From Dyella terrae (GTDB taxonomy: Bacteria; Pseudomonadota; Gammaproteobacteria; Xanthomonadales; Rhodanobacteraceae), in the NCBI RefSeq assembly GCF_004322705.1, contig NZ_SIZZ01000002.1, positions 186,001 to 250,000 on the forward strand: DNA of 64,000 nucleotides, written 5' to 3'. The notes under the pieces are model-generated. The model was given only the letters and a program-made list of their open reading frames with translations. It had not been told where the DNA came from and made no database searches. The translations under genes and the position numbers were made by a program. Shown here piece by piece: positions 11,669 through 64,000 of the stretch (the first letter of the stretch is position 1; each line of letters starts with the position of its first letter).

Positions 11669-11836
11669 TCACTTGATCTTGCCTTCCTTGTAGATCACGT
11701 GCTTGCGAACGACCGGATCGTACTTCTTGAACTCGAACTTTTCCGGGGTGTTCTTCTTGTTCTTCTGCGTGGTGTAGAAGTGGCCGGTACCGGCCGACGA
11801 GATCAGACGAATCTTGTCTTGCTTGCTATTAGCCAT
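11669..11836 (-). CDS. rpmG: 50S ribosomal protein L33
   Basis: A 55-residue ribosomal protein that translates as [20 protein letters not shown] and ends [11 protein letters not shown], matching L33 of the gammaproteobacterial cysteine-free type, which lacks zinc-binding cysteines. The ATG follows an AGGA about 9 bases upstream. It lies 10 bases downstream of rpmB, the usual order, and is followed by a hairpin and a bidirectional terminator. Component of the large ribosomal subunit. Confidence 0.97.
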
Positions 11837-11846
11837 GGCTCAATCC

Positions 11847-12083
11847 TCAGACCTTCTCGCCGCGGGCACGCAGGTCGGCAATCACGGCCTCGATGCCCTT
11901 CTTGTCGATCGTGCGCAGCGCCTGGCTGGAGACGCGCAGTTTGACCCAGCGGTTTTCGCTGGCGACCCAGAAGCGACGCTCATGCAGGTTAGGCAACCAG
12001 CGGCGACGGGTCTTGTTGTTGGCATGCGAGACGTTGTTACCAGTCTGCACACCCTTTCCGGTGACTTGGCATACACGGGCCAT
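11847..12083 (-). CDS. rpmB: 50S ribosomal protein L28
   Basis: A 78-residue ribosomal protein beginning [20 protein letters not shown] with the conserved [11 protein letters not shown] and [16 protein letters not shown]. The start at 12083 is fixed by a perfect GGAGG five bases upstream. Longer in-frame extensions run through the untranslated leader. It is the first gene of rpmB-rpmG. The leader contains a perfect 7-bp hairpin at 12214-12231. Confidence 0.98.
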
Positions 12084-12213
12084 GATGACCTCCGTAATTG
12101 GGTTTACCGCCCGTTGGCCAGGGCGACAGCGGCCCAGCGACGCAGTGCGCCACGCGATGCTGGAAGGTGAAGCTTTCGGGGTCTGCCGTAAGGGCCGCAT
12201 CGCGTTGCGGACG

Positions 12214-12231
12214 GACCCGGAGAACCGGGTC
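12214..12231 (-). promoter_or_regulatory. Leader hairpin upstream of rpmB
   Basis: GACCCGG-N4-CCGGGTC is a perfect 7-bp stem with a 4-base loop (TTCT on the minus strand) in the untranslated region about 130 bases before rpmB. A role in ribosomal protein autoregulation is possible but not shown. Confidence 0.4.
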
Positions 12232-12323
12232 GGCATGGCCGAGCCGCGTATTCTCCCAGAAAATGTAGCGGTGACGCAACTTTAGGGCGGAAGGCCGCCC
12301 CTGGGGGGGCGGTGAACGGAGGA

Positions 12324-12420
12324 GTCGCCCGCGTTGCGGGCTGTAAACGGGGAAAAAGCCAGGATCCCCGGAGTTTCCCGCTTTTACCGTTCACTGTTTA
12401 CAGCGAGCGTAGCGAGTGAC
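12324..12420. repeat. Heptamer palindrome, copy E1
   Basis: The left arm is a GCCCGC-GTT-GCGGGC hairpin followed by CTG and heptamers TAAACGG GGAAAAA. The right arm, read on the minus strand, is an imperfect CTCGC hairpin followed by CTG and TAAACAG TGAACGG TAAAAGC. The arms point at each other around a 20-base centre. It belongs to the same family as the elements near 33.7, 52.4, 56.4 and 63.9 kb. Confidence 0.85.
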
Positions 12421-33724: not shown

Positions 33725-33889
33725 GTCGCCTGCTGCGCGGGCTGCGGGGCCGGCTGCTGCGCAGCCTGTAAAGCCGCCCGCTTCGCGGGCTGTAAACAGG
33801 GAACAGGGAAAAGCCTCAGGCCCTGTTCGCCGCGGATCTCCGCTTTTCCCCGTTTACAGCTCGCGTTAGCGAGCGGCTTTACAGGCTGC
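33725..33889. repeat. Heptamer palindrome, copy E2, with nested hairpins
   Basis: The core has 17-bp perfect terminal inverted repeats (33761-33777 and 33873-33889). Inside them are a GCCCGC-TTC-GCGGGC hairpin with heptamers TAAACAG GGAACAG GGAAAAG on the left, and a GCTCGC/GCGAGC hairpin with TAAACGG GGAAAAG on the right (minus strand). Further hairpins of the same kind (GGCTGC-TGC-GCAGCC at 33752-33766) extend it leftwards. The stop codon of the small gene at 33866 lies in its right arm. Confidence 0.85.
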
Positions 33890-34057
33890 GACAGCGGCCG
33901 GCTTCACAGGAGGCGCAGCCTCCGGCTTCACTGCTCTGTATGCAGCCGGCTTCACAGGAGGCGCAGCCTCCGACTCCACCCCGGCAAGCCGCCGGGCGAG
34001 CTCCGGATCCGTAATGTGCCCGTGCATAAACAGCAAACCCGTAAACAAGGAAGCCAT
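33866..34057 (-). CDS. Small protein with repeat-derived C-terminal tail, 63 aa
   Basis: I do not recognise this protein. The ATG at 34057 has GAGG 7 bases upstream, which supports translation. Residues 1-27 (MASLFTGLLFMHGHITDPEL followed by ARRLAGV) look like a genuine short protein with a hydrophobic N-terminus. Residues 30-63 are low complexity: two 16-residue units starting EAAPPVKPAA, encoded by two identical 28-base repeats. The last eight codons and the TAA stop lie inside palindrome E2. The tail therefore appears to have been created or replaced by repeat units. Confidence 0.6.
   Translation of the reverse strand: MASLFTGLLFMHGHITDPELARRLAGVESEAAPPVKPAAYRAVKPEAAPPVKPAAVAACKAAR
33897..33972. 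repeat. Two identical 28-bp direct repeats containing a hairpin
   Basis: Copies at 33897-33924 and 33945-33972 are identical and 48 bases apart, keeping the reading frame of the small gene. Each contains GGAGGC-GCA-GCCTCC, followed on the minus strand by TGTGAAGCC, which resembles the CTGTAAAGCC that follows hairpins in E2. Confidence 0.85.
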
Positions 34058-40716: not shown

Positions 40717-40748
40717 GCGCTGTTCACCATTCACTGTTCACCCTTTCC
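40717..40748. repeat. Half heptamer element E6 between gspE and gspF
   Basis: Read on the minus strand it contains TGAACAG TGAATGG TGAACAG, three heptamers of the type seen in the full palindromes, ending 5 bases before the gspF ATG. No partner arm is visible. Confidence 0.65.
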
Positions 40749-49920: not shown

Positions 49921-52422
49921 ATGAGTACCCCTGTTTTTCCCATCGCGGCCATCCTTCCCGGTATTCGGGCATCGCTCGCCGCGCACCCGCGCCTGGTGCT
50001 CGAGGCGCCGCCTGGTGCCGGCAAGACCACGCAGGTGCCGCTGGCGCTGCTGGATGAAAGCTGGCTGGGCGGGCGCAAGATACTCATGCTGGAGCCGCGC
50101 CGCATCGCCGCGCGTGCGGCCGCGCAGTTCATGTCGAAACAACGTGGCGAGGAGCTGGGCCAGACGGTCGGTTATCGCATCCGCTTTGAGTCGAAGATCA
50201 CGGCCGCGACGCGAATCGAGGTCGTCACCGAAGGCATCCTCACGCGCATGATCCAGGACGATCCGGAGCTCGGCGCTTACGGTGCGATCCTGTTCGACGA
50301 GTTCCACGAACGTCATCTGGCGGCCGACCTTGGCGCGGCGCTGGCGCTGGACGTGCAGTCGACGCTTCGACCCCAGCTGCGCATCGTGGTGATGTCGGCG
50401 ACGCTGGACGGCGAGCGCATCGCGCAGTGGCTGGGCGCGCCGCGCATCACAAGTCCTGGCCGCAGCTTTCCCGTGCGGATGGACTATCCGCCGGCACGCG
50501 CGCAGGAATCCGTTGAACATCATCTTGCCCGCGTCACGCGGCAGGCGCTGCAGGAAAACGACGGCGACGTGCTTGCGTTCCTGCCCGGCCGACGCGAAAT
50601 AGCGCGTGCCGAAGCCGTGCTGACGCAGTCACTCGATCGCGACGACGTGGATGTGGTCGTGCTGCATGGCGAGCTGTCGCTGGCCGAGCAGCAGGCCGCA
50701 CTGAGTCCGGCCGAACCCGGCATGCGTCGCATCGTGCTTGCCACCAACGTGGCGGAGTCGAGCGTGACCTTGCCGGGCATTCGCGCCGTGGTCGACAGCG
50801 GCCTGGCACGCGAACCGCGCTTCGATCCGAGTTCGGGATTCACGCGGCTCGAAACGGTGACCATTTCGCAGGCGTCGGCTGACCAGCGCGCGGGCCGTGC
50901 AGGTCGTGTCGCCGAAGGCACCGCGTATCGCCTGTGGCCGCAGAGCAAGCGCCTCGATGTGGCGCGCACGGCGGAGATTGCGCAGGCCGAACTATCTGGA
51001 CTCGCGCTGGAGCTGGCGTCCTGGGGCAGTGCGGATCTGCCGTGGCTGGATGCGCCGCCCGTCGGCGCTCTGGCGCAGGCCCGCGCATTGCTGGTCATGC
51101 TTGGCGCCCTCGATGCGCTCGGTGGCATCACCGCGCTGGGACGCCGCATGCTTGAGCTGGGCGCCACGCCGAGGCTTGGTGCGGCAGCATTGCGCGCGCC
51201 GCCGGAACTGCAGGCCCTGGTCGCCGATCTTCTCGCCCTGATGGATGCGCGTTCACCCTTGCGGGGCGAGCGTGCCCGTAGCGACGACTTCCGCGAACGC
51301 CTGCTGGCGTTGCACGCCTGGCGCGATCGCCATGCGGCGGGTGCGCGAGGTGGCGCCGATGCCGGCGCACTGGCGGCGATCGAGCAGGCGAGCAAGGGAT
51401 GGCGAAAGCGTCTGGACGTCCGTTCACCCGCCAGTGGCGTGCCGGACAGTCACGCCGTGGGCGACCTGTTGATGCACGCGTTTCCGGATCGCGTCGCGCG
51501 TCGCGACGACAACCATCCGTTGCGCTACACCCTGGCCAATGGCCGCGGCGCGCGATTGCACGAGCAGACGGCCTTGCTGGGCGAGCCCTGGCTGGTGGCT
51601 CTGGACTTGCGCTTCGACGCGCGCGACAGCCTGATTCTCGCGGCAGCACCATTGGACGTGCGTGCACTCGAGCGTGACTTCAGCACGCTGTTCCGACGCG
51701 AGCGCACCGTGCGCTGGAACGATGACCGCAACGTCGTCGAAGCCTTCGATGAGCAGCGCTTCGCCGCGATCGTGATCGCGCGTCGCAGTGTGCCGCCACA
51801 GCCCGAGGATGCCTTGCCCGCGCTGTTGTCGGCGATTCGCGACAAGGGCATCGATGCCTTGCCCTGGAGTGAAAACGCCCGCCGGTTGCGTACGCGCATG
51901 CAGGCCTTGCGCGCGTGGATGCCCGAGCTCGGATTGCCGGACGTGTCCGACGAAGCCTTGCTGGCTTCGCTGGAGGCCTGGCTTGGTCCGTATCTCACGG
52001 GCAAGCGGCGCATCGACGCGATCGGCGTCGACGACCTGTCGCAGGCGCTGGCCTCCATGGTCGATTACGACCAGCGTCGTGCGCTGGACGAACAGGCGCC
52101 GGAGAGCATGACCGTGCCCAGCGGCATGACGCGCCGCATCGAGTACGCGCCCGGCGAACCGCCCGTCTTGGCGGTCAAGTTGCAGGAGTTATTCGGCCTG
52201 GCCGACACGCCACGCGTGGGTGGCGGACGCATTCCGGTGACCTTGCATCTGCTGTCACCGGCGGGACGCCCCATCCAGGTGACCCAGGACCTCAAGGGCT
52301 TCTGGGAACGCACGTATCCGGAAGTGAAGAAGGAACTGAAGGGGCGATATCCACGGCATCCATGGCCAGATGATCCGTGGACGGCGGTGGCGACGCACCG
52401 GGCGAAGCCGCGCGGGACGTGA
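49921..52422 (+). CDS. hrpB: ATP-dependent helicase HrpB
   Basis: An 833-residue DEAH/RHA-type helicase. Walker A is EAPPGAGKTTQVPLAL, the DExH box reads LFDEFHERHLAADLG, motif III is MSATLDGERI, motif VI is QRAGRAGRVAEG. The C-terminal HrpB domain has SVPPQPEDALPALLSAIRDKG and the final RYPRHPWPDDPWTA. The start is taken at ATG 49921, where the family similarity begins; ATG 49912 is nine bases upstream. The function is RNA-related but not firmly known. The gene ends directly at palindrome E3. Confidence 0.95.
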   Translation: MSTPVFPIAAILPGIRASLAAHPRLVLEAPPGAGKTTQVPLALLDESWLGGRKILMLEPRRIAARAAAQFMSKQRGEELGQTVGYRIRFESKITAATRIEVVTEGILTRMIQDDPELGAYGAILFDEFHERHLAADLGAALALDVQSTLRPQLRIVVMSATLDGERIAQWLGAPRITSPGRSFPVRMDYPPARAQESVEHHLARVTRQALQENDGDVLAFLPGRREIARAEAVLTQSLDRDDVDVVVLHGELSLAEQQAALSPAEPGMRRIVLATNVAESSVTLPGIRAVVDSGLAREPRFDPSSGFTRLETVTISQASADQRAGRAGRVAEGTAYRLWPQSKRLDVARTAEIAQAELSGLALELASWGSADLPWLDAPPVGALAQARALLVMLGALDALGGITALGRRMLELGATPRLGAAALRAPPELQALVADLLALMDARSPLRGERARSDDFRERLLALHAWRDRHAAGARGGADAGALAAIEQASKGWRKRLDVRSPASGVPDSHAVGDLLMHAFPDRVARRDDNHPLRYTLANGRGARLHEQTALLGEPWLVALDLRFDARDSLILAAAPLDVRALERDFSTLFRRERTVRWNDDRNVVEAFDEQRFAAIVIARRSVPPQPEDALPALLSAIRDKGIDALPWSENARRLRTRMQALRAWMPELGLPDVSDEALLASLEAWLGPYLTGKRRIDAIGVDDLSQALASMVDYDQRRALDEQAPESMTVPSGMTRRIEYAPGEPPVLAVKLQELFGLADTPRVGGGRIPVTLHLLSPAGRPIQVTQDLKGFWERTYPEVKKELKGRYPRHPWPDDPWTAVATHRAKPRGT

Positions 52423-52537
52423 GGTCGCGTGCTGGTGCACGCGGTGAACGGTGAACAGTAAACGGTGCAAGGCAAGCACGGGCAAACATGCAGGTCGCCC
52501 TTACCGTTCACCGTTTACAGCCCGCGCAGCGGGCGAA
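52423..52537. repeat. Heptamer palindrome, copy E3
   Basis: It fills the whole convergent gap between the hrpB and glk stop codons. Left arm: a GTGC-TG-GTGCAC hairpin-like start, then heptamers TGAACGG TGAACAG TAAACGG TGCAAGG. Right arm on the minus strand: a GCCCGC-TGC-GCGGGC hairpin, CTG, then TAAACGG TGAACGG TAAGGGC. The hairpins could act as a shared terminator. Confidence 0.88.
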
Positions 52538-52538
52538 C

Positions 52539-53561
52539 TCACTCGCCAGCGGGTACCAGTGGCAGGCCGCTCTCAAGCACCGCGAATGCCGCTGCGCCAA
52601 GCAGGCCCGGCTCCGGATGCGTCATGGCGATCGTCGGCACCTGCACCATCGTTTCCTGGAAACGACCCTTCGCTTCGAAGCGCGAACGGAAGCCGCCGTG
52701 CTTGAGCCACGGAAGCAGGATGGGCAGCACGCCGCCGGTGAGGAACACGCCTTCCCAGCCGCCCAGGCTCAGCACCAGGTCACCGGCGACGCTGCCGAAG
52801 ATGCCGGCCAGCGTTTCGACCGTGCGAATGCACAGGGCATCGGTCCCGGCGTTGGCGCGGTCGGTGATGTCTTCCGGCGTGTAGTCCTCGGCGGGCAAAC
52901 CGTGGATGTCGGCGAGGGCGAGGTAAAGGTTCACCAGGCCATTGCCGCAGATCATGCGTTCGTTGGAGACGCGACCAAAGCGCGCGTTGAGGCGATGCAG
53001 GATTTCGACGTCTTCCGCCGTGTGCGCGGCAAAGCCGGCATGGCCGCCTTCGGTTTCGAGCACTGTCCAGCGGCCCTCACGCAGCAGCAGACCTGCAACG
53101 CCCAGGCCCGTGCCCGGGCCCATCACCACGAAAGTCTGCGTGTGATGGGCACCGAGATGCGGCAACGCTTGCGGACCGACGGCTTCAAGCTGGTCGTGCC
53201 GCAGCAACGGCACGGCCATGCCCTGCGCGGCGAAATCGTTAACCAGTCGCACGGAGTCGAGTTTCAACTCGGCCTGCAGGCCATGCGCCGACACCGCCCA
53301 GGGATTGTTGGTGACCTTCACCGTTTCGCCATCGGCAATACGGCCGGCCGCTGCAATCACGGCGCGCGTCGCATGGTTGCCCGTGTCCGCGAAGTACTGG
53401 CGGATGGTCTCAGCCAGCGACGGGAAATCTTTCACGCGGTAACGGCGCACGCTGTCGAGCAGCAGCGGCGTGGGGCGGGTGGGATCGGCGAGAGCGAAGC
53501 GAACGTTGGTGCCGCCCAGGTCAGCGAGCAGCGTGATGGCGGCGTTGGCGGTAGATCTCAT
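52539..53561 (-). CDS. glk: Glucokinase
   Basis: A 340-residue bacterial glucokinase, phosphorylating glucose with ATP. The phosphate-binding motif LLADLGGTNVRFALAD lies near the N-terminus. The catalytic Asp is in VRLVNDFAAQG, the second ATP motif reads FVVMGPGTGLGVAGLL, the zinc-less sugar-binding ETEGGHAGFA follows, and LSLGGWEGVFLTGGVLP is at the adenosine site. ATG 53561 has AGGA 7 bases upstream; the longer frame reads through the promoter region. It lies next to a beta-glucosidase whose product is glucose. Confidence 0.95.
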   Translation of the reverse strand: MRSTANAAITLLADLGGTNVRFALADPTRPTPLLLDSVRRYRVKDFPSLAETIRQYFADTGNHATRAVIAAAGRIADGETVKVTNNPWAVSAHGLQAELKLDSVRLVNDFAAQGMAVPLLRHDQLEAVGPQALPHLGAHHTQTFVVMGPGTGLGVAGLLLREGRWTVLETEGGHAGFAAHTAEDVEILHRLNARFGRVSNERMICGNGLVNLYLALADIHGLPAEDYTPEDITDRANAGTDALCIRTVETLAGIFGSVAGDLVLSLGGWEGVFLTGGVLPILLPWLKHGGFRSRFEAKGRFQETMVQVPTIAMTHPEPGLLGAAAFAVLESGLPLVPAGE

Positions 53562-53762
53562 GAACAATCCTGGCAACGGGTCAGGTCGCACCGCCACGTG
53601 GCGTGGGCCTGGGGTCGGTCCCTGTTGTCCGCCGCGCTTGGCGGCGGGTGGGGAAACGTCTGAGTGTACGTCAGTAGACGACCGAAGGATGACAGGCTGC
53701 AAACGAATTCAGGAACTGCGGGACCCTACTGTTCCGAATGTTCGTGATGTCTAAGGCTTTGC

Positions 53763-55115
53763 TTAGTCATCAAGAGCCGTGCCGTGGCTCTCGATGACCT
53801 GCGTGTAGAACCTGGCGGTGGCTTTGGGCGTACGTTTCTGGGTAGCAAAGTCCACGTGGTACAGGCCGAATCGCTTGGAGAAACCCAGTGACCACTCGAG
53901 GTTGTCCATCAGCGACCAGGCGTAGTAGCCGCGCACATCGACACCGGCCTGAATGGCGTCGTGTACGGCCTTGAGGTGTTTGCGCAGGTAGTTGGTGCGC
54001 AGCGGGTCGTCGAGTACGGCTGCTTCGGCCACCGGCGGATCGTAGAAGGCCGAGCCGTTTTCGGTGATGTAGAGCGGGATATCGCCGTAGCGGTCCTTGA
54101 ACCAGGTCAGCGTGTCGGTCAGGCCCTGCTCGAACACTTCCCAGCCCGTTTCCGTGTAGGTCTTGTTCGGTTGGCGCACGGGCGACGCCTTCAGCGGATA
54201 CTGATTTTCATCGTGTTTCACGACGGCGCGCGTGTAGTAGTTGATGCCGACGAAGTCGACCTTCTGCTGAGTCAACTTGAAGTCGTCGGCCGGGAATTCC
54301 GGCCAGGCATCGCCGAAGATCTCCTTCAGCTCCGGCGGATAGCTGCCCAGCAGGGCCGGGTCGGCGAATTGCTCGTTCATGTAGGCGTGCGCCCGACGCG
54401 TGGCGGCAAGGTCCTGCTCGCTTTGCGAATGCGGATACTTCGGCTCGATATTGAAGACGACGCCGATCTCATGCTTGCCATGCGCGCGGTAAGCCTGGAT
54501 GCCGGCGCCGCTGGCGCGCATCAGGTTATGCGCGGCGATCGGCGCTTCGTATTTGCTGCGATGTCCGGGCGCGAGCGCGCCGTGCAGGTATCCGCCGTCA
54601 GTCACCACCCAGGGCTCATTGAGCGTGGACCAGCGCTGCACGCGTCCGTCCAGCGCCTTGAACATCACTTCGGCGTATTCAGCGAACCAGTGCGCGATGT
54701 CGCGGTTGAGCCAGCCGCCGCGGTCGTCCAGCGCCGCCGGAAGATCCCAGTGAAACAGGGTGGCGTTGGGTGCGATGCCCTGCTCGAGCAGCTCGTCGAC
54801 CAGGCGCTTGTAGAAATCCAGGCCCTTCTGGTTCACCCGGCCGGTGCCCTCGGGCAGCACGCGCGCCCAGGCGATGCTGAAGCGATAGCCCTGCAGGCCC
54901 AGCGCCTTCATCAGCTGGACGTCGTCCTTGTAGCGACGGTAGTGGTCGCAAGCGACGTCGCCGGTATCCCCGCCCACCATCATTCCCGGCGTATGCGCGA
55001 AGCGTTCCCAGATGCTGGGGCCGGCGCCGTCAGCCAGCGGGGAGCCCTCGATCTGGTAGGCGGAGGTCGCGGCGCCCCAGAGGAAGCCATCGGGGAAACG
55101 GTAGGTCTGGGTCAT
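53763..55115 (-). CDS. GH1 beta-glucosidase
   Basis: A 450-residue family 1 glycoside hydrolase. It begins FPDGFLWGAATSAYQIEGSP. The acid/base Glu167 is in STLNEPWV and the nucleophile Glu352 in LYITENGSAF; FHWDLPAALDDRGGW and SLMDNLEWSLGFSKRFGLYHVDF are further signatures. No signal peptide is present, so it acts in the cytoplasm on imported cellobiose or other beta-glucosides. ATG 55115 has GAGG upstream. It is divergent from the UgpC-type ATPase, with a LacI-type palindrome between them. Confidence 0.95.
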   Translation of the reverse strand: MTQTYRFPDGFLWGAATSAYQIEGSPLADGAGPSIWERFAHTPGMMVGGDTGDVACDHYRRYKDDVQLMKALGLQGYRFSIAWARVLPEGTGRVNQKGLDFYKRLVDELLEQGIAPNATLFHWDLPAALDDRGGWLNRDIAHWFAEYAEVMFKALDGRVQRWSTLNEPWVVTDGGYLHGALAPGHRSKYEAPIAAHNLMRASGAGIQAYRAHGKHEIGVVFNIEPKYPHSQSEQDLAATRRAHAYMNEQFADPALLGSYPPELKEIFGDAWPEFPADDFKLTQQKVDFVGINYYTRAVVKHDENQYPLKASPVRQPNKTYTETGWEVFEQGLTDTLTWFKDRYGDIPLYITENGSAFYDPPVAEAAVLDDPLRTNYLRKHLKAVHDAIQAGVDVRGYYAWSLMDNLEWSLGFSKRFGLYHVDFATQKRTPKATARFYTQVIESHGTALDD

Positions 55116-55147
55116 GGGGAGAGCCCTCGATGCCGCATCGCGGCTTG

Positions 55148-55163
55148 ATGTAAACGTTTACAT
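55148..55163. promoter_or_regulatory. LacI/GalR-family operator
   Basis: ATGTAAACGTTTACAT is a perfect 16-bp palindrome with the central CG typical of LacI-family operators. It lies 33 bases before the beta-glucosidase ATG and 127 before the ATPase gene. No LacI-family gene is present in the window. Confidence 0.8.
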
Positions 55164-55289
55164 TGGAGAATATCCGAATGTTCCCCGCTTGTGCAGTCCG
55201 ACCGGCGGGTCAGGGTTTGCCCCGGTTTCCGGGCTGGCTCGTCGGCTGTCAGTGTGGTCCGATGACTCGGCCACGGGAGAGGATCAGGC

Positions 55290-56366
55290 ATGGCCCAAGT
55301 GCGTCTGGACAAGCTGCGCAAGGTGTATCCCAACGGCCATGTCGGCGTGGCGGACGCCAGTTTCGACATCGCCGACGGCGAGCTGCTGGTCCTGGTAGGG
55401 CCCTCCGGCTGCGGCAAGACCACGCTGCTGCGCATGATCGCCGGCCTGGAATCCATCAGCGGCGGCACGCTTAGCATTGGCGATCGGGTGGTCAATGACG
55501 TGGCGCCCAAGGATCGGGATATCGCCATGGTGTTCCAGAACTACGCGCTTTATCCGCATATGACCGTCGCAGAGAATCTTGGCTTTGGCCTGCGCCTGCG
55601 CGGCACGCCGACGTCGGAAGTGGACCGGCGCGTGGCGGACGCGGCGCGCATGCTTGAACTGGAGCAGCGCCTGGATTCACGCCCGGCGGCGTTGTCGGGC
55701 GGTCAGCGCCAGCGTGTCGCGCTCGGTCGCGCGCTCGTGCGCAATCCATCGGTGTTCCTGCTCGACGAGCCGCTCTCCAACCTCGACGCCAAACTACGGC
55801 TGTCCATGCGCGTGGAGATCGCGCGCATCCACCGCAAACTCGGCGCAACGATGGTCTACGTCACCCACGACCAGATCGAGGCGATGACACTGGGCCAGCG
55901 CATCGTGGTGCTCAACGGCGGCGTGATCCAGCAGATCGACACGCCCATGAACCTCTACGACAAACCGGCCAATCTCTTCGTCGCCGGTTTCCTGGGCAGC
56001 CCGGCGATGAACTTGTTTCGCGGCACGCTGCGCGCTGACGGGCGTCTGGAAACGCCCGAAAGCACCGTGGCCCTGGGCGAACTCCCACCGACGAGCGCGC
56101 TGGCGAACTGGCTGGACAAGGAAGTGGTCGTGGGCGTGCGCCCGGAAGATCTGCAACCTTCCGACCACGGTTCGCTTTCAGCCCAACTCGAAGTCATCGA
56201 GCCTGTGGGCAATGAAGTCTTTCTCAATCTGCGCCACGGCACGACGGAGCTGGTTTCGCGCGTTGCGCCCCGTTCGCTGCCGTTGCCGGGTGCATCGATG
56301 ACGTTCGGGTTCGCGCCCGAGAAGCTCCACTTCTTCGATGCAGCCTCCGGGCAGCGTATCGGGTGA
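55290..56366 (+). CDS. ugpC: UgpC/MalK-type sugar ABC transporter ATPase
   Basis: A 358-residue ATPase of the carbohydrate uptake CUT1 class. Walker A is VGPSGCGKTTLLRMIAGLE, the signature LSGGQRQRVALGRALVRNP, Walker B VFLLDEPLSNLDAKLR, and the H-loop YVTHDQIEAMTLG. The C-terminal TOBE/regulatory domain has VGVRPEDL and FAPEKLHFFD. No permease or binding protein genes lie nearby, so it probably energises transporters encoded elsewhere, as MsmK-type ATPases do. GAGAGGA precedes the ATG. Palindrome E4 follows the stop codon directly. The gene symbol is by similarity. Confidence 0.9.
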   Translation: MAQVRLDKLRKVYPNGHVGVADASFDIADGELLVLVGPSGCGKTTLLRMIAGLESISGGTLSIGDRVVNDVAPKDRDIAMVFQNYALYPHMTVAENLGFGLRLRGTPTSEVDRRVADAARMLELEQRLDSRPAALSGGQRQRVALGRALVRNPSVFLLDEPLSNLDAKLRLSMRVEIARIHRKLGATMVYVTHDQIEAMTLGQRIVVLNGGVIQQIDTPMNLYDKPANLFVAGFLGSPAMNLFRGTLRADGRLETPESTVALGELPPTSALANWLDKEVVVGVRPEDLQPSDHGSLSAQLEVIEPVGNEVFLNLRHGTTELVSRVAPRSLPLPGASMTFGFAPEKLHFFDAASGQRIG

Positions 56367-56367
56367 A

Positions 56368-56467
56368 GTCGCGCGCGTTGCGCGCTGTTAACGGTGAACA
56401 GTAAACGGTAAGAGCCAGAGCGGCCCCCGCTCTTACCGTTCACCGTTTACAGCCCCGAAGGGGCGAC
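56368..56467. repeat. Heptamer palindrome, copy E4
   Basis: It begins one base after the ugpC stop. Left arm: a GCGCGC-GTT-GCGCGC hairpin, then heptamers TTAACGG TGAACAG TAAACGG TAAGAGC. Right arm on the minus strand: a GCCCC-TTC-GGGGC hairpin, CTG, then TAAACGG TGAACGG TAAGAGC. The arms pair over most of their length through the CTCTTACCGTTCACCGTTTAC stretch. This is the best-preserved copy. Confidence 0.9.
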
Positions 56468-56501
56468 CCTCCGCTCTTGTCTCACGCTGCTTGCAATTTA
56501 T

Positions 56502-56520
56502 TCGAATGCGAGTCATTCTC
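56502..56520 (+). promoter_or_regulatory. Fur box upstream of haem receptor
   Basis: TCGAATGCGAGTCATTCTC matches the 19-base Fur consensus at 12 positions, including AATG and TCATT in the two halves. It lies 106 bases before the receptor ATG and fits iron-repressed expression of the haem operon. Confidence 0.7.
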
Positions 56521-56562
56521 ATCTAAGAGCTCACACCCCCGATAACGAACCGGCCGCCAGCC

Positions 56563-56579
56563 GCAGGCGCAACGCCTGC
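56563..56579 (+). promoter_or_regulatory. Leader hairpin 1 of the haem operon
   Basis: GCAGGCG-CAA-CGCCTGC, a 7-bp perfect stem with a three-base loop, directly abutting the second hairpin in the untranslated leader. Confidence 0.6.
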
Positions 56580-56619
56580 CTTTGCCAGCAACGCCGTGTG
56601 CAAACACGCCTGGCAAAGG
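56579..56619 (+). promoter_or_regulatory. Leader hairpin 2 sequestering the receptor ribosome binding site
   Basis: CCTTTGCCAG (56579-56588) pairs perfectly with CTGGCAAAGG (56610-56619), and an inner GTGT-GCAA-ACAC stem caps the loop. The 3' arm contains the AAAGG of the ribosome binding site used by the receptor ATG at 56626. This could be an RNA thermometer or a site opened by another factor (inference). Hairpin 1 shares the base at 56579, so the two may compete or stack. Confidence 0.6.
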
Positions 56620-56625
56620 AACACC

Positions 56626-58935
56626 ATGTCCATGTTTCGCCTTACACCGCTTGCCGCGGTGATTTTCGCCGTCCTGGTCGCGCCGGTGCGCGCCGACGAC
56701 AGCGCCGCCACTGCCGAGAACACCACCGAACTGCCGAAAGTGCAGGTGACGGCGATCAGCTCGTCGCTGCAGCTCAACACGCCCGGCACGGTCACGCAGA
56801 TCAGCCGTCAGCAGATGGACGAGCATCTGGTGAGCAATATCCGCGACCTCGTGCGCTATGAGCCGGGTGTGTCGGTGATCGGTACGGCCGGTCGCTTTGG
56901 TCTGGACAGCTTCAATATCCGTGGACTGTCGGGTAACCGCACGCGTATCGAAATCGACGGCGTGAGCATGCCTTCGTCGTTTGGTGCGGGCGTCGGTGGC
57001 GGCAGCTTCCGTGCGGGCCGCAACTTCGTGGATCTCGACACCGTGCGTCAGGTGGAGATCGTACGCGGTCCGGCGTCGGCCATTTATCCGTCCGATTCGC
57101 TGGGTGGCATGGTGAGCTTGCGCACGAAGGATCCGGTCGATTACCTCACCGATGGCCGCCACGTTTATCTCTCGCTGAAAGAGCAATACGACACCACCGA
57201 CCGCAGCTTGAGCTCCGCGGCGACGCTGGCGGGTGGCAACGCGCAGAACGGTATCGTCTTTATCTTCAACCACCGCGAAGGCCACGAGACCGACAACAAG
57301 GGCGACATCGGCGGCTACGGCGCCGCGCGCACGCGTCCCGATCCGTTGACCTATGGCCTGGACAGTTTCCTGGCCAAATACGTGCACACCTCCGCGAAGG
57401 GACGGCTGGATCGCGTCACCGTCGAAGGCTCGCAGCTGCGGACGAAAACCAACAGCTGGTCCGCCATGGGCGGCGCGGTGGGTTACTACCACTCGCAGGA
57501 CGAGAATCGTCGTGTGCGCGGCAGCGTCGGGCAGGAATACACCGCGATCGACTCGCCGATCGTCAGTTCACTGGAATGGAACGTCTACGCGCAGAACGCC
57601 CGCAGCACCACGGATACGCAGACCGAAACGGCAGCCTACCGCCGCAATTTCAACAACATGCCACTGCGCGAACGCGTCATGGGCGGCAAGCTTGTCGCAG
57701 TGAAGCGGCTGGGTGACGACAGCGCGGTCGCCCAATCCATCAGCTACGGTGTCGAGCTTTCGCGCACCACCGCTGATTCGTGGGCCAGCGGCTATGGGCA
57801 GAGCAAGGCGACAGGAGCCACGGGCACCACCACGCCCTACATGCCGGGCCGCTATCCGATGCATCTGATCCCCAAGAGCGACACCGATCGCTGGTCGGTC
57901 TTTGCCGAAGACGAGATCACGCTGCTCGACTCGCATTTGCAGATCACGCCCGGTGTACGCGTGGACCGCTACGAGTACAAGCCGGACAACGACGCGCTGT
58001 ACCAGAAGTACAACCCCACCTTTGTCGCGCAGAACTACGAGAAGACGCATACCTCGCCGAAGCTCGGCGTGATCTGGCGCATCAACGACGTCTACAGCGT
58101 GTACGGCAACTACGCGCAGGGATTCCGCCCGCCGCTTTACAGCGAGATCGCCGGCGCGTGGAACGAACAACCGATCGCCAGCATCAACATCGCGTATCTG
58201 CCAAACAACAACCTCAAGGCTGAAACCAGCAAGGGCCTGGAGCTGGGCTTCCGCGGCCACGGCACGGCCGGCTGGTTCAACGTCGCTGCGTACTACAACA
58301 AGTACCGCGACTTCATCTGGTCCGGTTATGCCTTGCCTGCCGCGCAGGTGCCAGACTGGGCGTATCAGATGGCGCCCGGCGCGCGCGTCAACATGTTCTT
58401 CCAGGCGGTCAACGCGCCGCGCGCGGTGATCAAGGGCGCCGAAGCCAGCGGTGCGTTGCGGCTGGAGACCTTCGCCGATGCCTTGCAGGGATGGCAGCTC
58501 AAGGGCAGCGCGTCGATCACCAGCGGCAAACTGATCGAACCGGGCAGTGATGGCTACAGCCCGCTCAATACGGTCGATCCGGCCAAGCTGGTGCTGGGCG
58601 TTTCGTACGACGCGACGCAATGGGGCGCCGAGCTGGTCGGCACCGGTGTGCGTCGTCATACGCAACTTTCGCTGCCGACGGCCTTCCGCCCGCCGGGCTA
58701 CGCCACGATCGATCTGTACGGCCACTACGAGCCAGTCAAGAACCTCACCCTCTACGCCGGCGTGACCAACCTCGCCGACCGCAAGTACTGGGACTGGGGC
58801 AACCTCAATAGCGGCGTGCTGGGCAACCTGATTACCGGCAACGGCGCCAACGATGCCGGCACCGGTGGCATTCCCGCCGATCGCCTCACCATGCCCGGTC
58901 GCACTTTCAGCATCGCCGCACGCATCGCTCTGTGA
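56626..58935 (+). CDS. hmuR: TonB-dependent haem receptor (HmuR-like)
   Basis: A 769-residue outer membrane receptor. The signal peptide ends near residue 24 (APVRAD). The plug has TVTQISRQQMDEHLVSNIRD and RGLSGNRTRIEIDGV. The barrel includes YGNYAQGFRPPLYSEI and NNNLKAETSKGLELGF, the counterparts of the FRAP and NPNL boxes of haem receptors, although no His lies between them. It ends FSIAARIAL rather than in Phe. ATG 56626 has AAAGGA 5 bases upstream, inside a leader hairpin. First gene of the haem operon. Confidence 0.9.
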   Translation: MSMFRLTPLAAVIFAVLVAPVRADDSAATAENTTELPKVQVTAISSSLQLNTPGTVTQISRQQMDEHLVSNIRDLVRYEPGVSVIGTAGRFGLDSFNIRGLSGNRTRIEIDGVSMPSSFGAGVGGGSFRAGRNFVDLDTVRQVEIVRGPASAIYPSDSLGGMVSLRTKDPVDYLTDGRHVYLSLKEQYDTTDRSLSSAATLAGGNAQNGIVFIFNHREGHETDNKGDIGGYGAARTRPDPLTYGLDSFLAKYVHTSAKGRLDRVTVEGSQLRTKTNSWSAMGGAVGYYHSQDENRRVRGSVGQEYTAIDSPIVSSLEWNVYAQNARSTTDTQTETAAYRRNFNNMPLRERVMGGKLVAVKRLGDDSAVAQSISYGVELSRTTADSWASGYGQSKATGATGTTTPYMPGRYPMHLIPKSDTDRWSVFAEDEITLLDSHLQITPGVRVDRYEYKPDNDALYQKYNPTFVAQNYEKTHTSPKLGVIWRINDVYSVYGNYAQGFRPPLYSEIAGAWNEQPIASINIAYLPNNNLKAETSKGLELGFRGHGTAGWFNVAAYYNKYRDFIWSGYALPAAQVPDWAYQMAPGARVNMFFQAVNAPRAVIKGAEASGALRLETFADALQGWQLKGSASITSGKLIEPGSDGYSPLNTVDPAKLVLGVSYDATQWGAELVGTGVRRHTQLSLPTAFRPPGYATIDLYGHYEPVKNLTLYAGVTNLADRKYWDWGNLNSGVLGNLITGNGANDAGTGGIPADRLTMPGRTFSIAARIAL

Positions 58936-58948
58936 GCGAGGAGACAAC

Positions 58949-60037
58949 ATGCTCAACGAAAACGTGAATCCCTCCGTCGTGGAACTTCCGCCAGCCCAGC
59001 TGCGCGATGCATGGGCGGCCCTGAAGCAAGCCGAGCCCAACCTGCGCGCGCGTGATCTTGCCGAGAAGCTTGGCGTGAGCGAAGGCGAAGTGGTGGCCAG
59101 TCGCTGCGGCGAGGGCGTCGTGCGGCTTGAAGGCCCTTGGGCGGACCTGATCCGCGACCTCCCCTCGGTCGGCTACGTGATGGTGCTGACGCGCAACGAT
59201 AGCTGTGTGCACGAGAAGAAGGGCAGCTTCAACAACGTCGATCTCGGCCCGATGATGGGCGTGGTGCTGGACGAAGCGATCGATCTGCGCATTTTCCTCA
59301 AGCACTGGAAGTACGGCTTTGCGGTGCGCGAGGAGTCACGCGGTCGCGTCCTCAACAGCCTGCAGTTCTTTGATAGCGATGGCACCGCGGTGCACAAGAT
59401 CTACCAGACCGAACAGACCGACGCGGAGGCGTGGTCGCGGCTGGTGGCGAAGTTCAATGCGGCTGTGCAGACGCCGCTGTTCGAAGCGCGGACCGTCGCC
59501 GACCCGCTGCCGGAAGTGCTCAAGGACAACGCGATTGATGTCGCGGCCCTGCAGGACGGCTGGCGGGCGATGCGCGATCCGCACGATTTCTTTGCACTGC
59601 TGCGGCGCCAGCAGGTGACGCGTGCGCAGGCATTGCGCCTGGTGGGCGATGAATTCGCACATCGTGTCGACAACAGCGCCGTGCGCGTCATGCTCGAACA
59701 GGCTTCGGTCAGCGAACTACCGATCATGGTGTTCGTCGGCTCGCCGGGCGTGGTGCAGATCCACACCGGGCCCGTGCATCACATCAAGCCCATGGGACCA
59801 TGGCTCAACATTCTCGATCCTGACTTCAACCTGCATCTGCGCGAAGACCACATCGTGCAGAGCTGGGTCGTGCGCAAGCCGTCGCCGGAAGGCGCCGTGA
59901 CCTCGCTGGAGTTGTACGACGCGAAGGGGCAACAGATCGTGCAGTTCTTCGGCAAGCGCAAGCCGGGCATTCCGGAGCGCGAGGACTGGCGTGTGCTGGT
60001 GGCGTCGCTTCCGCGAGCGGAGGTGGATCATGGCTAA
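58949..60037 (+). CDS. hmuS: Haem-degrading/haem carrier protein (HemS/ChuS family)
   Basis: A 362-residue cytoplasmic protein built of two similar halves (about residues 1-175 and 190-362), as in HemS and ChuS, which bind haem and release its iron. Segments include LREKLGVSEGEV-like ARDLAEKLGVSEGEVVAS, LTRNDSCVHEKKGSF in the first half, and FVGSPGVVQIHTGPVHHIK with DPDFNLHLREDHI in the second, where a conserved His ligand is expected. ATG 58949 follows GAGGAG. The stop overlaps the hmuT start by 8 bases. Confidence 0.94.
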   Translation: MLNENVNPSVVELPPAQLRDAWAALKQAEPNLRARDLAEKLGVSEGEVVASRCGEGVVRLEGPWADLIRDLPSVGYVMVLTRNDSCVHEKKGSFNNVDLGPMMGVVLDEAIDLRIFLKHWKYGFAVREESRGRVLNSLQFFDSDGTAVHKIYQTEQTDAEAWSRLVAKFNAAVQTPLFEARTVADPLPEVLKDNAIDVAALQDGWRAMRDPHDFFALLRRQQVTRAQALRLVGDEFAHRVDNSAVRVMLEQASVSELPIMVFVGSPGVVQIHTGPVHHIKPMGPWLNILDPDFNLHLREDHIVQSWVVRKPSPEGAVTSLELYDAKGQQIVQFFGKRKPGIPEREDWRVLVASLPRAEVDHG

Positions 60038-60905
60038 GCTGGGTCTGTCGCTTCTGCGGCGCATGGCTTTCCTCGGCATCGCTGCGATCGTCGCCTTGAC
60101 CAGTTTCCGCGCCGCTGCCGAAACGCCGGTTCGCGTCGTCGCGCTGGGCGGCGACATCACCGAAACCATCTATGCACTGGGCGCCGAATCAAGCCTGGTT
60201 GGCGTCGACAGCACGAGCCTGTGGCCCGAAGCGGCGCAGAAACTGCCCAATGTCGGCTATGTGCGGCAGTTGAGCGCCGAAGGCATCCTCGCCCTGCATC
60301 CGCAGTTGATCATTGCCACGCACGACGCGGGCCCTGCGGCGGTGATCGAGCAGTTGCGGCAGGCTGGTGCGCGTCTGGAAATGTTGCCGGTGTCGCGCAG
60401 CCCCGACGATGCGCTCGCGAAGGTTCGCCGCATCGGCGAGCTGCTGGATCGCAAGGCGCAGGCCGAGGCGCTGGCGCAGCGCATGAGCGCTCACTACCAG
60501 TCGCTGGGTGCCAGCGTCGCGTCGATGAAGCGTCATCCGCGCGTGGTGTTCCTGATGTCCGCCGGCGCAGGAAGCCCGATGGCGGCAGGCAGGCACACGG
60601 CGGCCGATCGCGTCATCGCGCTGACCGGCGGTACCAATGTTGCCGCCCGCTTCGAAGGCTACAAACCCGTCTCGCCCGAAGCGATGGTGGCGCTCGCGCC
60701 GGACGTGATCATGCTGATGCGTGAACGCGCGACGGATGTCGGTGGTGTCGAGGGTGTACTGAAACTCCCCGGTGTCACACAGACGCCTGCGGGCAAAGCC
60801 CAGCGCATCCTGTTCATCGACGGCCAGGCCTTGCTGGGCTTCGGTCCGCGCAATGCCGCCGAGGCCGTCGAACTGCAGCAGACGCTCGCCGGGGCCGCGC
60901 CGTGA
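60030..60905 (+). CDS. hmuT: Haem ABC transporter substrate-binding protein
   Basis: A 291-residue periplasmic binding protein with a signal peptide cleaved near residue 30 (TSFRAAAET). The class III binding fold begins VRVVALGGDITETIYALGAE, with VGYVRQLSAEGILALHPQLIIA and the C-terminal LPGVTQTPAGKAQRILFIDG, all typical of HmuT. ATG 60030 has GGAGG just upstream and overlaps hmuS. It carries haem to the HmuUV transporter. Confidence 0.94.
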   Translation: MAKLGLSLLRRMAFLGIAAIVALTSFRAAAETPVRVVALGGDITETIYALGAESSLVGVDSTSLWPEAAQKLPNVGYVRQLSAEGILALHPQLIIATHDAGPAAVIEQLRQAGARLEMLPVSRSPDDALAKVRRIGELLDRKAQAEALAQRMSAHYQSLGASVASMKRHPRVVFLMSAGAGSPMAAGRHTAADRVIALTGGTNVAARFEGYKPVSPEAMVALAPDVIMLMRERATDVGGVEGVLKLPGVTQTPAGKAQRILFIDGQALLGFGPRNAAEAVELQQTLAGAAP

Positions 60906-61960
60906 ATTCGGCCGTCATGCCAGCGCCGGTGATTCGCCAGGCGCGATCACTGGCGCTGGTGGCGCTCACCGGATTGCTGGTGCTGACGTCCTTGTGGGGG
61001 CTCAACAGCGGCGCCATGGACATCTCCATCGCCCAGGTCACGGGTGCCATCGGACGATGGATCGCGGGTGATGCATTGAGCAGCGAGGACCATGTCGTGC
61101 TGATGCTGCGCTTGCCGCGAGTTGGCATGGCTGTACTGGTGGGCGCCGCGCTTGCCTGCGGTGGCACGACGATGCAGGGCCTGTTTCGCAACCCGCTCGC
61201 CGATCCCGGGCTGATCGGCGTGTCGGCCGGCGCGGCGCTGGGTGCGGTGGGGATGATCGTGCTGGGGCATCGTCTCGGTGCATGGCTGCCGGAAGGATCC
61301 GCGTCGTATCGCGTGGCCGCGGCGGCGTTCGTGGGCGGGCTGGCCGCCACGGCGCTGGTCTACGCGATCGGTCGACGCCGGCAAGGCGTGGCGACCTTGT
61401 TGCTGGCCGGCGTGGCGATCAATGCGATGGCGATGGCCGGCGTCGGCATGCTGACGTTCCTCGCCAGCGAAAACCAGTTGCGCGATCTCACCTTCTGGAC
61501 GCTCGGCAGCCTCGGCGGCAGTGACTGGTCGAAGATCGGTCTGGTGGCGCCGTTGATCCTCGCGCCGCTGCTGGTGCTGCCACAACTGGCGCGCGCGCTT
61601 AATGCGTTGCTGCTGGGCGAGCACGAAGCGACGCTGATGGGCTTTCGTCCCGGGCGATTGCAGCCCTTGCTGGTGGTGCTGGTCGCGTTGATGGTCAGCG
61701 CGGCGGTCGCCATGACCGGCGTCATCGGCTTCGTGGGCCTGGTCGTGCCGCATGTGCTTCGGCTGATCTGGGGGCCCGATCACCGTCTGTTGCTGCCTGC
61801 TTCGGCGCTGGGCGGTGCAGCCTTGTTGGTGGCGGCCGACACGCTGGCGCGCGTCGTCGTGGTGCCGGCGGAATTGCCTATCGGCGTCCTGACGGCGCTG
61901 ATCGGTGGGCCGTTCTTCCTGTGGCTGTTGTTGCGCCATCGCGTAGGAGAAGGTGCATGA
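60902..61960 (+). CDS. hmuU: Haem ABC transporter permease
   Basis: A 352-residue FecCD-family permease with about ten membrane segments. Signatures include LRLPRVGMAVLVGAALACGGTTMQGLFRNPLADPGLIGVSAGA split over the first helices, LGSLGGSDWSKIG, and the coupling region GFVGLVVPHVLRLIWGPDHR. The GTG start overlaps the hmuT stop (GTGA). The stop overlaps the hmuV ATG. Confidence 0.95.
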   Translation: MNSAVMPAPVIRQARSLALVALTGLLVLTSLWGLNSGAMDISIAQVTGAIGRWIAGDALSSEDHVVLMLRLPRVGMAVLVGAALACGGTTMQGLFRNPLADPGLIGVSAGAALGAVGMIVLGHRLGAWLPEGSASYRVAAAAFVGGLAATALVYAIGRRRQGVATLLLAGVAINAMAMAGVGMLTFLASENQLRDLTFWTLGSLGGSDWSKIGLVAPLILAPLLVLPQLARALNALLLGEHEATLMGFRPGRLQPLLVVLVALMVSAAVAMTGVIGFVGLVVPHVLRLIWGPDHRLLLPASALGGAALLVAADTLARVVVVPAELPIGVLTALIGGPFFLWLLLRHRVGEGA

Positions 61961-62775: not shown

Positions 62776-63870
<1,095 letters not shown>

Positions 63871-63885
63871 GGCCGGGGCATTGAC

Positions 63886-64000
63886 GCGCCCCTGTGAGGG
63901 CGCTCACTGCGCGTCGCTGTAAATGGTGAACAGGGAAGAGCGGCTCACGGCCACCTTGGCCCGCATTTCCTATTCACCATTCACCATTCATAGCCCGCTT
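63886..64000. repeat. Heptamer palindrome, copy E5 (cut by the window edge)
   Basis: A GCGCCC/GGGCGC hairpin 15 bases after the hemB stop is followed by CGCTG and heptamers TAAATGG TGAACAG GGAAGAG. The right arm on the minus strand has TGAATGG TGAATGG TGAATAG, four bases short of exact repetition at its end. The terminal hairpin of the right arm runs off the window. Confidence 0.75.

What the first reader, a model, noticed from the sequence alone, without database searches (positions are those of the whole stretch)
12324..12420. Dispersed family of heptamer-repeat palindromes in intergenic regions
At least five full elements (12324-12420, 33725-33889, 52423-52537, 56368-56467, 63886-64000) and one half element (40717-40748) share an architecture: hairpin, CTG, then 2-4 tandem heptamers TRAACRG in each of two inverted arms. 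The hairpin sequences differ between copies while the stem pairing is kept, which implies selection or spread as structured units. The number of heptamers varies by arm, as expected of slippage. Classic REP elements do not carry a 7-bp tandem core. No REP-associated transposase is in the window. I do not know a named family with this form.
Basis: seen in the sequence. Interest (0 to 1): 0.72.

Follow-up and report, generated by a model that had tools for sequence, protein, structure and literature searches.

The report
Stop-codon-anchored heptamer palindrome repeat family
This bacterium carries about ninety copies of a short mirror-image DNA repeat, built from small hairpins and 7-letter units and often joined directly to a gene's stop codon; related species carry mirror-image repeats made of different 7-letter units, once at the very same spot, so the layout seems to matter more than the letters.

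Summary
The arm motif occurs 11 times in the window (up to 2 mismatches; 0.04 expected) and 244 times in the genome (up to 1 mismatch). I parsed 86 paired elements and 25 solo arms. An arm is a TRA trinucleotide, mostly RKYCG, a 4-6 bp hairpin, CTG, then 2-5 TRAACRG heptamers and often TAAGAGC. Two arms face each other across a variable centre.

Stem pairing is kept across different stem sequences. The hairpin unit often starts exactly at the upstream gene's stop codon (23 of 49 parsable cases; 0.3 expected). Most elements lie at gene ends. Six elements on one contig share their centre, so whole units were copied; the best dispersed pair is 90% identical, so the spread is old. The only Y1-type transposase match is a decayed gene away from the elements.

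Five congeners lack TRAACRG elements at all six window sites, but at pilB-pilC two carry GGGAATA palindromes, one an AGTGAGA-like array, one a weak array, and one is empty.

Best reading: a REP/REPIN-like, stop-anchored palindrome family, a new variant of a known kind. The GTAG tag and RAYT link are not met. The nearest described heptamers (Xanthomonas GGGAATC) were linked to G-quadruplexes, which TRAACRG cannot form.

The parts
12324..12420 (.). Element 1: GTCG head, hairpin (12328-12340), CTG, one good heptamer plus a degenerate one, centre, two heptamers on the minus strand (12387-12400), hairpin. It lies between divergent genes (L28 on the minus strand, SecB on the plus strand), not at a gene end.
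   Evidence: (RNA fold z -3.0)
33725..33972 (.). Element 2, an array: hairpin units 33751-33771, 33775-33795, 33854-33875, 33904-33924, 33952-33972 around a degenerate heptamer core; between divergent genes (zinc-type dehydrogenase on the minus strand, LysR regulator on the plus strand)
   Evidence: (33770-33880, z -7.1)
40720..40740 (-). Solo heptamer array (TGAACAG TGAATGG TGAACAG) between pilB-like (T2SSE) and pilC-like (T2SSF) genes; no hairpin, no partner arm. Congeners carry other heptamer palindromes here, or nothing.
52420..52541 (.). Element 3: fills the space between the stop codons of two convergent genes (HrpB-type helicase, glucokinase); heptamers 52445-52465 (+) and 52504-52517 (-)
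   Evidence: (z -4.7)
56364..56467 (.). Element 4: starts at the stop codon of an ABC transporter ATPase gene; heptamers 56388-56408 (+) and 56436-56449 (-)
   Evidence: (z -5.7)
63868..64000 (.). Element 5: starts at the stop codon of an ALAD (hemB-type) gene; heptamers 63920-63933 (+) and 63970-63990 (-); right end cut by the window
   Evidence: (z -3.3)

Best explanation
The elements are a non-autonomous, REP/REPIN-like family of palindromic repeats that spread in this species' lineage and is now ageing in place. The building unit is TRA + RKYCG + short hairpin + CTG, and it ends where the next TRA begins. Units follow a TRA: a gene's stop codon, the TRA after another unit, or (by analogy) the TRA that opens each heptamer. 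Two arms of one to a few units plus heptamers face each other across a fast-changing centre, so the whole can fold as two small hairpins beside a long heptamer stem.

Shown: unit anatomy, kept stem pairing, stop-codon fusion in many cases, 3'-end bias, copying of whole units in one subfamily, absence at the same sites in five congeners, and no intact Y1 transposase gene found.

Inferred: past movement as a single strand by a Y1/HUH-type transposase that joined units 3' of TRA and was later lost or acted from outside; and that in RNA a hairpin about five bases after the stop codon slows ribosome release or protects the 3' end, as reported for E. coli REPs within 15 nt of a stop codon.
For: Copy number and dispersal: 244 pattern hits; the 83 held stretches contain 224 of them. 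R1 model: 146 arms at E up to 0.01, only 150 candidates being scored.

Anatomy: 197 arms, 86 pairs, CTG tag on 152 of 197, spacer between heptamer runs median 37.

Pairing.

Whole-unit copying: six elements on contig C4 share 28-39 bp of centre at about 85-89% identity, some in opposite orientation; five of the six have the same left and right hairpin classes and one has them exchanged. Three more (C4:81570, C1:2288864, C2:171452) share 12-16 bp stretches of that centre and the hairpin classes; C2:889934 and C2:1046898 share 30 bp at 97%.

Gene ends: 79 of 86 are mainly outside called genes; of these convergent 34, same-strand 40, divergent 5. Stop-to-heptamer distance peaks at 20-23 and 44-50. 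The outermost parsed unit starts exactly at the stop codon in 23 of 49 cases, 0.3 expected (max 3 in 1000 rounds of shifted stops); 9 more start 24-25 nt after it, one unit length. A separate count by motif: TGA+RKYCG-like at offset 0 in 30 of 98 stops near elements and 10 of 113 far from paired ones; 6 of those 10 have an unpaired arm beside them.

Ancestral stop: at the 52423 (left gene) and 63886 sites congener C-termini end at the same place (read by eye).

Lineage-specific: 0 TRAACRG elements in 30 site-by-genome comparisons, 6 sites x 5 congeners; the loose regex gave 4 matches, one inside a gene and three in GGGAATA arrays.

No mover: one decayed Y1_Tnp gene with three in-frame stops, no unit within about 1.5 kb; 9 of 25 genes lying between close elements were checked and none matches a transposase in Pfam.

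REP parallels.
Against: No transposase is linked to the family: of 30 Y1_Tnp loci of relatives, taken by score, 27 show no unit-like match and 3 a single loose one that lacks the head; the highest-scoring of these look IS200-like rather than RAYT-like (my reading of the scores). No excision or insertion event was seen. The best dispersed pair is 90.1% identical, so transposition is inferred from shared centres only. Left and right hairpin classes are not associated overall (9 of 57 the same, 9.9 expected), and arms within one element are no more alike than arms of different elements, which does not suggest each pair descends as a fixed unit. The head is RKYCG, not GTAG. Two of the five full window elements (12324, 33725) lie between divergent genes. 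In 52 of 101 arms near a stop no complete unit could be parsed, and 26 of the 49 parsed are not fused.
Confidence: 0.55

Rival explanations
1. They are RNA 3'-end structures kept by selection (termination, mRNA protection or translation control) and built in place at gene ends by slippage and duplication, rather than transposed.
For: Gene-end bias and stop-codon fusion; strong folds; kept pairing; by eye the tuf/tRNA-Trp spacer holds some palindrome or hairpin in most of the 88 genomes read; different heptamers at one site with unrelated centres; 10 of 86 centres hold a run of at least five A or T, and one (C1:587939) reads like an intrinsic terminator.
Against: Six dispersed elements share a centre, which in-place growth does not give; no terminator-like site at the two elements scanned (52300-56600); 12324 and 33725 lie between divergent genes.
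Confidence: 0.2
2. They are ordinary REPINs whose cognate RAYT sits in other strains or has been lost: a plain new member of the RAYT-REP kind.
For: Inverted arms with spacer, kept stems, 3'-end location, stop-supplying termini; a decayed Y1_Tnp gene is present.
Against: No GTAG tag; no Y1_Tnp gene flanked by units in 31 loci looked at; the heptamer core is not part of REPINs as described in the passages seen.
Confidence: 0.15
3. They are simple heptamer tandem repeats expanded by slippage, kept for a nucleic-acid property such as a G-quadruplex.
For: GGGAATC heptamers with 70-75 inverted pairs per Xanthomonas genome and G4 formation in vitro; heptamer number varies per arm; one 22-unit tract at C1:1135706.
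Against: The consensus TRAACRG has no G-tract of three, so no G4; arms are inverted pairs joined to hairpin units, often at stop codons, which slippage does not explain.
Confidence: 0.07

Closest known systems
GGGAATC (GGGNATC) heptamer repeats of Xanthomonas (Rehm et al. 2015, PMC4692102; abstract and passages seen)
   Same: Tandem heptamers, variable unit number, mainly intergenic, 70-75 inverted pairs per genome, often within 50 bp of a stop codon; the GGGAWTV type is abundant in several relatives here, 151 hits in G003 and 79 in G004.
   Different: Heptamer TRAACRG is not G-rich and cannot form a G4; hairpin units and stop-codon fusion are not mentioned in the passages seen; the TRAACRG pair was frequent in only one of 61 genomes.
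GTAG-tagged REPs and their dimers (Di Nocera et al. 2013, PMC3733652; abstract, sections 5, 7, 16 and passages seen)
   Same: Short hairpins with alternative complementary stem residues, inverted dimers and clusters, convergent and same-strand gene ends, REP termini that provide stop codons.
   Different: Head is RKYCG, with GTCG a minority and GTAG not among the 20 commonest heads; the stop provided is mostly TGA or TAA, not TAG; a heptamer core lies between the units; no transposase gene flanked by them was found.
REPINs (Bertels and Rainey 2011, PMC3116915; passages seen)
   Same: Two inverted conserved arms with a spacer, compensatory stem changes, tandem clusters.
   Different: No neighbouring RAYT; arms carry heptamer arrays; the best dispersed full-length pair is only about 90% identical.
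TAACTGA heptamer direct repeats of Beggiatoaceae (MacGregor 2015, PMC4679880; passages seen)
   Same: Intergenic tandem heptamers in many copies.
   Different: Direct repeats mostly just upstream of start codons, one inverted case of 170, no hairpin units mentioned.

Membership tests
GTAG REP superfamily | GTAG (degenerate: GYAG, GYRG, GTRG, GTMG) at the foot of the hairpin | tested here: not met
   commonest heads GGCCG 17, ATTCG 16, GGTCG 11, AGCCG 10, AGTCG 10, ATCCG 7; GTCG (allowed as GTMG) is 24 of the 90 heads in the 20 listed classes, GTAG 0
GTAG REP superfamily | short palindrome with interchangeable complementary stem residues | tested here: met
   135 of 166 arms with a perfect stem of at least 4 bp vs 36 (max 54) with swapped halves
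GTAG REP superfamily | many copies, intergenic, convergent or same-strand gene ends, termini giving stop codons | tested here: met
   exceptions at 12324 and 33725
RAYT-associated REP / REPIN | RAYT gene in the genome with flanking copies | tested here: not met
   one decayed Y1_Tnp gene, no unit within about 1.5 kb; 30 Y1_Tnp loci of relatives: 27 without, 3 with one loose match
REPIN | two inverted arms with spacer, folding as a hairpin | tested here: met
   86 pairs; folds of the five window elements
REPIN | excision or transposition intermediates | not testable with these tools
   no reads; one genome per species
Xanthomonas GGGNATC heptamer repeats | tandem heptamers in inverted pairs in intergenic DNA | tested here: met
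Xanthomonas GGGNATC heptamer repeats | G-tract heptamer able to form a G-quadruplex | tested here: not met
   commonest heptamers TAAACGG 153, TGAACGG 103, TGAACAG 91, TAAACAG 40
MITE of a DDE transposon | terminal inverted repeats, target duplication, autonomous parent | tested here: inconclusive
   inverted arms yes; 9 of 25 genes between close copies checked, no transposase; target duplication not measured
Rfam RNA family | match above gathering score | tested here: not met
   0 matches in the 64-kb window

The most novel reading that the evidence does not exclude
Heptamer-arm palindromes are a distinct class of bacterial repeat in this gammaproteobacterial family. The 7-bp period, the inverted pairing and the place just after a stop codon stay constant, while the heptamer sequence differs from species to species (TRAACRG, GGGAATA/C, GGGATTC, GGGACTC, AGTGAGA-like). 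They arise again at the same gene ends by a machinery, not RAYT, that measures seven bases and reads a TRA stop codon as its target.
Probability: 0.25. Interest if true: 0.82.

Novelty: new variant of a known kind. Interest (0 to 1): 0.6.

Why it matters
Heptamer repeats in Xanthomonas have been linked to G-quadruplex formation. A family with the same layout, built from a heptamer that cannot form one, points to the inverted 7-bp architecture and the position after the stop codon as what is kept. Six species of one genus at one site (pilB-pilC) give several different heptamers and one empty site, a natural series for asking how such repeats arise, what enzyme makes them and whether they act on translation or mRNA ends. 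The direct fusion of a hairpin to a stop codon can be tested with simple reporters.

Tried and rejected
RAYT at the elements: not supported. Autonomous element flanked by two copies: 9 of 25 genes between close copies were checked; 8 have Pfam domains other than transposases, 1 none. Known RNA family: none in the window. Within-element homogenisation of the two arms: not seen (within 2.37 differences, between 2.32; heptamer counts uncorrelated). Intrinsic terminator: none at the two elements in 52300-56600, though 10 of 86 centres hold an A or T run of five or more. Shared descent of the pilB-pilC palindromes: centres are alike only in G003 and G004 (score 64, shuffles at most 14); the other nine pairs lie within the shuffles. 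A 7-bp period at tuf/tRNA-Trp is not universal: best lag is 7 in 30 of 88, above all 60 shuffles in 24 of 88. (100% pairing) is circular because those 25 arms had been picked for pairing; only one search counts. One search gave mostly chance pairs (254, loose pattern) and was dropped. The conserved stretch 11671-12263 proved to hold a ribosomal protein gene (L28 by Pfam); no Rfam match reached its gathering score there. Organism name: not settled; the one named-genome scan used an ABC ATPase, a poor marker; its best hit was Luteimonas abyssi at 66%.

Limits: in large R1 scans only 27 or 17 candidates per genome were scored, so counts in relatives are lower bounds. Gene calls come from a small codon model trained on 18 ORFs of the window.

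Full report
What is there. The window is part of a 4.22-Mb genome in nine contigs. Genome-wide, CTGTRAACRGTRAACRG with up to one mismatch occurs 244 times; the 83 stretches I hold (265 kb) contain 224 of them, so the survey is nearly complete. A grammar parser found 197 arms, 86 inverted pairs and 25 solo arms; arms carry two (113), three (68), four (12) or five (3) heptamers, plus one tract of 22 units. The tag before the heptamers is CTG in 152 of 197. After the last heptamer comes TAAGAGC (57), GTAAGAG (19) or TAAAAGC (15) most often.

Hairpins. Outer stems are of several kinds (GCGGG 41, GGCG 36, GCCGC 14 and others). Without choosing arms for pairing, 135 of 166 tagged arms have a perfect stem of at least four pairs; swapping 5' halves between arms gives 36 (max 54), shuffling the bases 5.8 (max 13). 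So the pairing is kept while the letters differ. The left and right hairpin of one element are not associated in kind overall (9 of 57 the same, 9.9 expected). The earlier count on alignment A1 was made on arms picked for pairing and is not used.

Copying. The centres of most elements share little beyond their ends, but six elements on contig C4 (13901, 20972, 23188, 143641, 149810, 152405) share 28-39 bp of centre at about 85-89% identity, some in opposite orientation; five have the same left and right hairpin classes, one (23188) has them exchanged. Three more elements (C4:81570, C1:2288864, C2:171452) share 12-16 bp pieces of this centre, and C2:889934 and C2:1046898 share 30 bp at 97%. The six must descend from one whole element. 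The best full-length identity between dispersed copies is 90.1%, so copying is not recent. Local tandem duplications also occur (C4:83846-84090 and C4:263225-263475). Density is uneven: 96 paired elements per Mb on C4, 26 on C2, 13 on C3, 10 on C1.

Place. With gene calls from a codon model, 79 of 86 elements lie mainly outside genes; of those 34 lie between convergent, 40 between same-strand and 5 between divergent genes, while in the window as a whole 8 of 24 gaps of at least 60 bp are divergent. Distances from stop codon to heptamers cluster at 20-23 and 44-50, the lengths of one and two hairpin units. Parsing the units shows why: the outermost unit begins exactly at the stop codon, using it as its TRA, in 23 of 49 parsable cases, against 0.3 expected; nine more begin 24-25 nt after it. 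In 52 further arms near a stop no complete unit could be parsed. By motif alone, TGA followed by an RKYCG-like head stands at 30 of 98 stops near elements and 10 of 113 far from paired elements; six of these ten have an unpaired arm beside them, leaving four without. At 52420-52541 both convergent genes end in the element, and nothing else lies between them. Read by eye, congeners have the same C-termini for the left gene at this site and for the gene ending at 63870, so the element joined existing stop codons there. Two of the five full window elements do not fit: 12324 lies between L28 and SecB genes and 33725 between a dehydrogenase and a LysR gene, both pairs divergent.

Relatives. In 30 comparisons (six sites, five congeners) no TRAACRG element is present; four loose matches were one inside a gene and three in GGGAATA arrays. 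Gene order or content differs at the 33725 and 56368 sites. At pilB-pilC, G003 and G004 have a GGGAATA palindrome, G001 an AGTGAGA-like one, G005 a weaker array, and in G002 the stop codon overlaps the next start, an empty site. All five filled spacers, this genome's included, have seven as their best period, above all 60 shuffles; lag-7 scores 0.95, 0.90, 0.71, 0.67 and 0.67 for G004, G003, G001, G005 and G000. Their centres are unrelated except between G003 and G004, so these look like separate arrivals. GGGAWTV heptamers number 151 in G003, 79 in G004, and 8, 2, 1 and 8 in G000, G001, G002 and G005; the TRAACRG pattern numbers 244 in G000 and 0 in those five, although the structured R1 model gives two matches in G002 (best E 4.5e-8) and one in G001 (4.3e-6). 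Across the family R1 finds matches in 19 of 233 genomes, 6 of 26 genera, this one included; the eleven loci of relatives read show heptamer-like arms such as TAAAGGG, TAAATGG and TGAAGAG. In a class-wide sample only this genome matches, 1 of 369. These scans scored few candidates per genome and are lower bounds. The tuf/tRNA-Trp region matched in 187 of 230 genomes; in the 88 spacers read, a GTCG-hairpin palindrome, a GGG-type heptamer palindrome or a plain hairpin is commonly found, largely by genus (sorted by eye). This genome has the GGGACYC type there while all five congeners begin with the GTCG hairpin.

Mover. The only Y1_Tnp match in the genome is a remnant with three in-frame stops and no unit within about 1.5 kb. 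Of thirty Y1_Tnp loci of relatives 27 show no unit and three a single loose match without the head; they were taken by score, and few come from element-rich genomes. Nine of 25 genes between close copies were checked and include no transposase. Insertion 3' of a short target with a hairpin guide is the rule of IS200/IS605 elements (recalled), which is why I favour a past HUH enzyme; this is inference.

Comparison. Di Nocera et al. report that GTAG REP termini often provide a TAG stop codon and that in two genomes most convergent REPs lie within 20 bp of both genes; the present units do the same mostly with TGA and TAA but lack the GTAG tag and the RAYT link, so I do not file them as GTAG REPs. 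Rehm et al. describe GGGAATC heptamers, often in inverted pairs, and show G-quadruplex formation in vitro; TRAACRG cannot form these. The slippage proposal for heptamers (Mrazek) was seen only as quoted by MacGregor. REPs within 15 nt of a stop codon are reported to stall ribosomes in E. coli, 446 of 4,072 REPs being that close; here the stem starts about five bases after the stop in fused cases. TRAACRG-type elements were not found in print in the searches, which cover an open-access library only.

Verdict.

Noticed in passing
G000:C1:1135706-1135859 (L024): A run of 22 TRAACRG-type heptamers on one strand, followed by CGAACAG and other heptamers: a long one-sided expansion.
   Followed up: no
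L183, L184 (G004, G003), window site 52423: At the same convergent spacer congeners carry a different long palindrome (CCCTCTCC...GGGAGAGGG with GGGGTGAGGG); G001 and G002 (L185, L186) have a GTAGGAGC-type REP there.
   Followed up: partly
L236-L325, tuf to tRNA-Trp spacer: This spacer is a recurrent home of palindromes of at least three kinds across the family.
   Followed up: partly
window 56551-62721: This 6.2-kb stretch lies elsewhere in the genome in three of five congeners (G003, G004, G005), where its neighbours are adjacent; element 4 lies at its left end here.
   Followed up: no
G000:C4 (281 kb): 27 paired elements on C4, 96 per Mb against 10 on C1, and the shared-centre subfamily is mostly there; C4 may be a separate replicon or a younger region.
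   Followed up: no
L031:1450-2150: Decayed Y1-type transposase gene, the only one found in the genome.
   Followed up: yes
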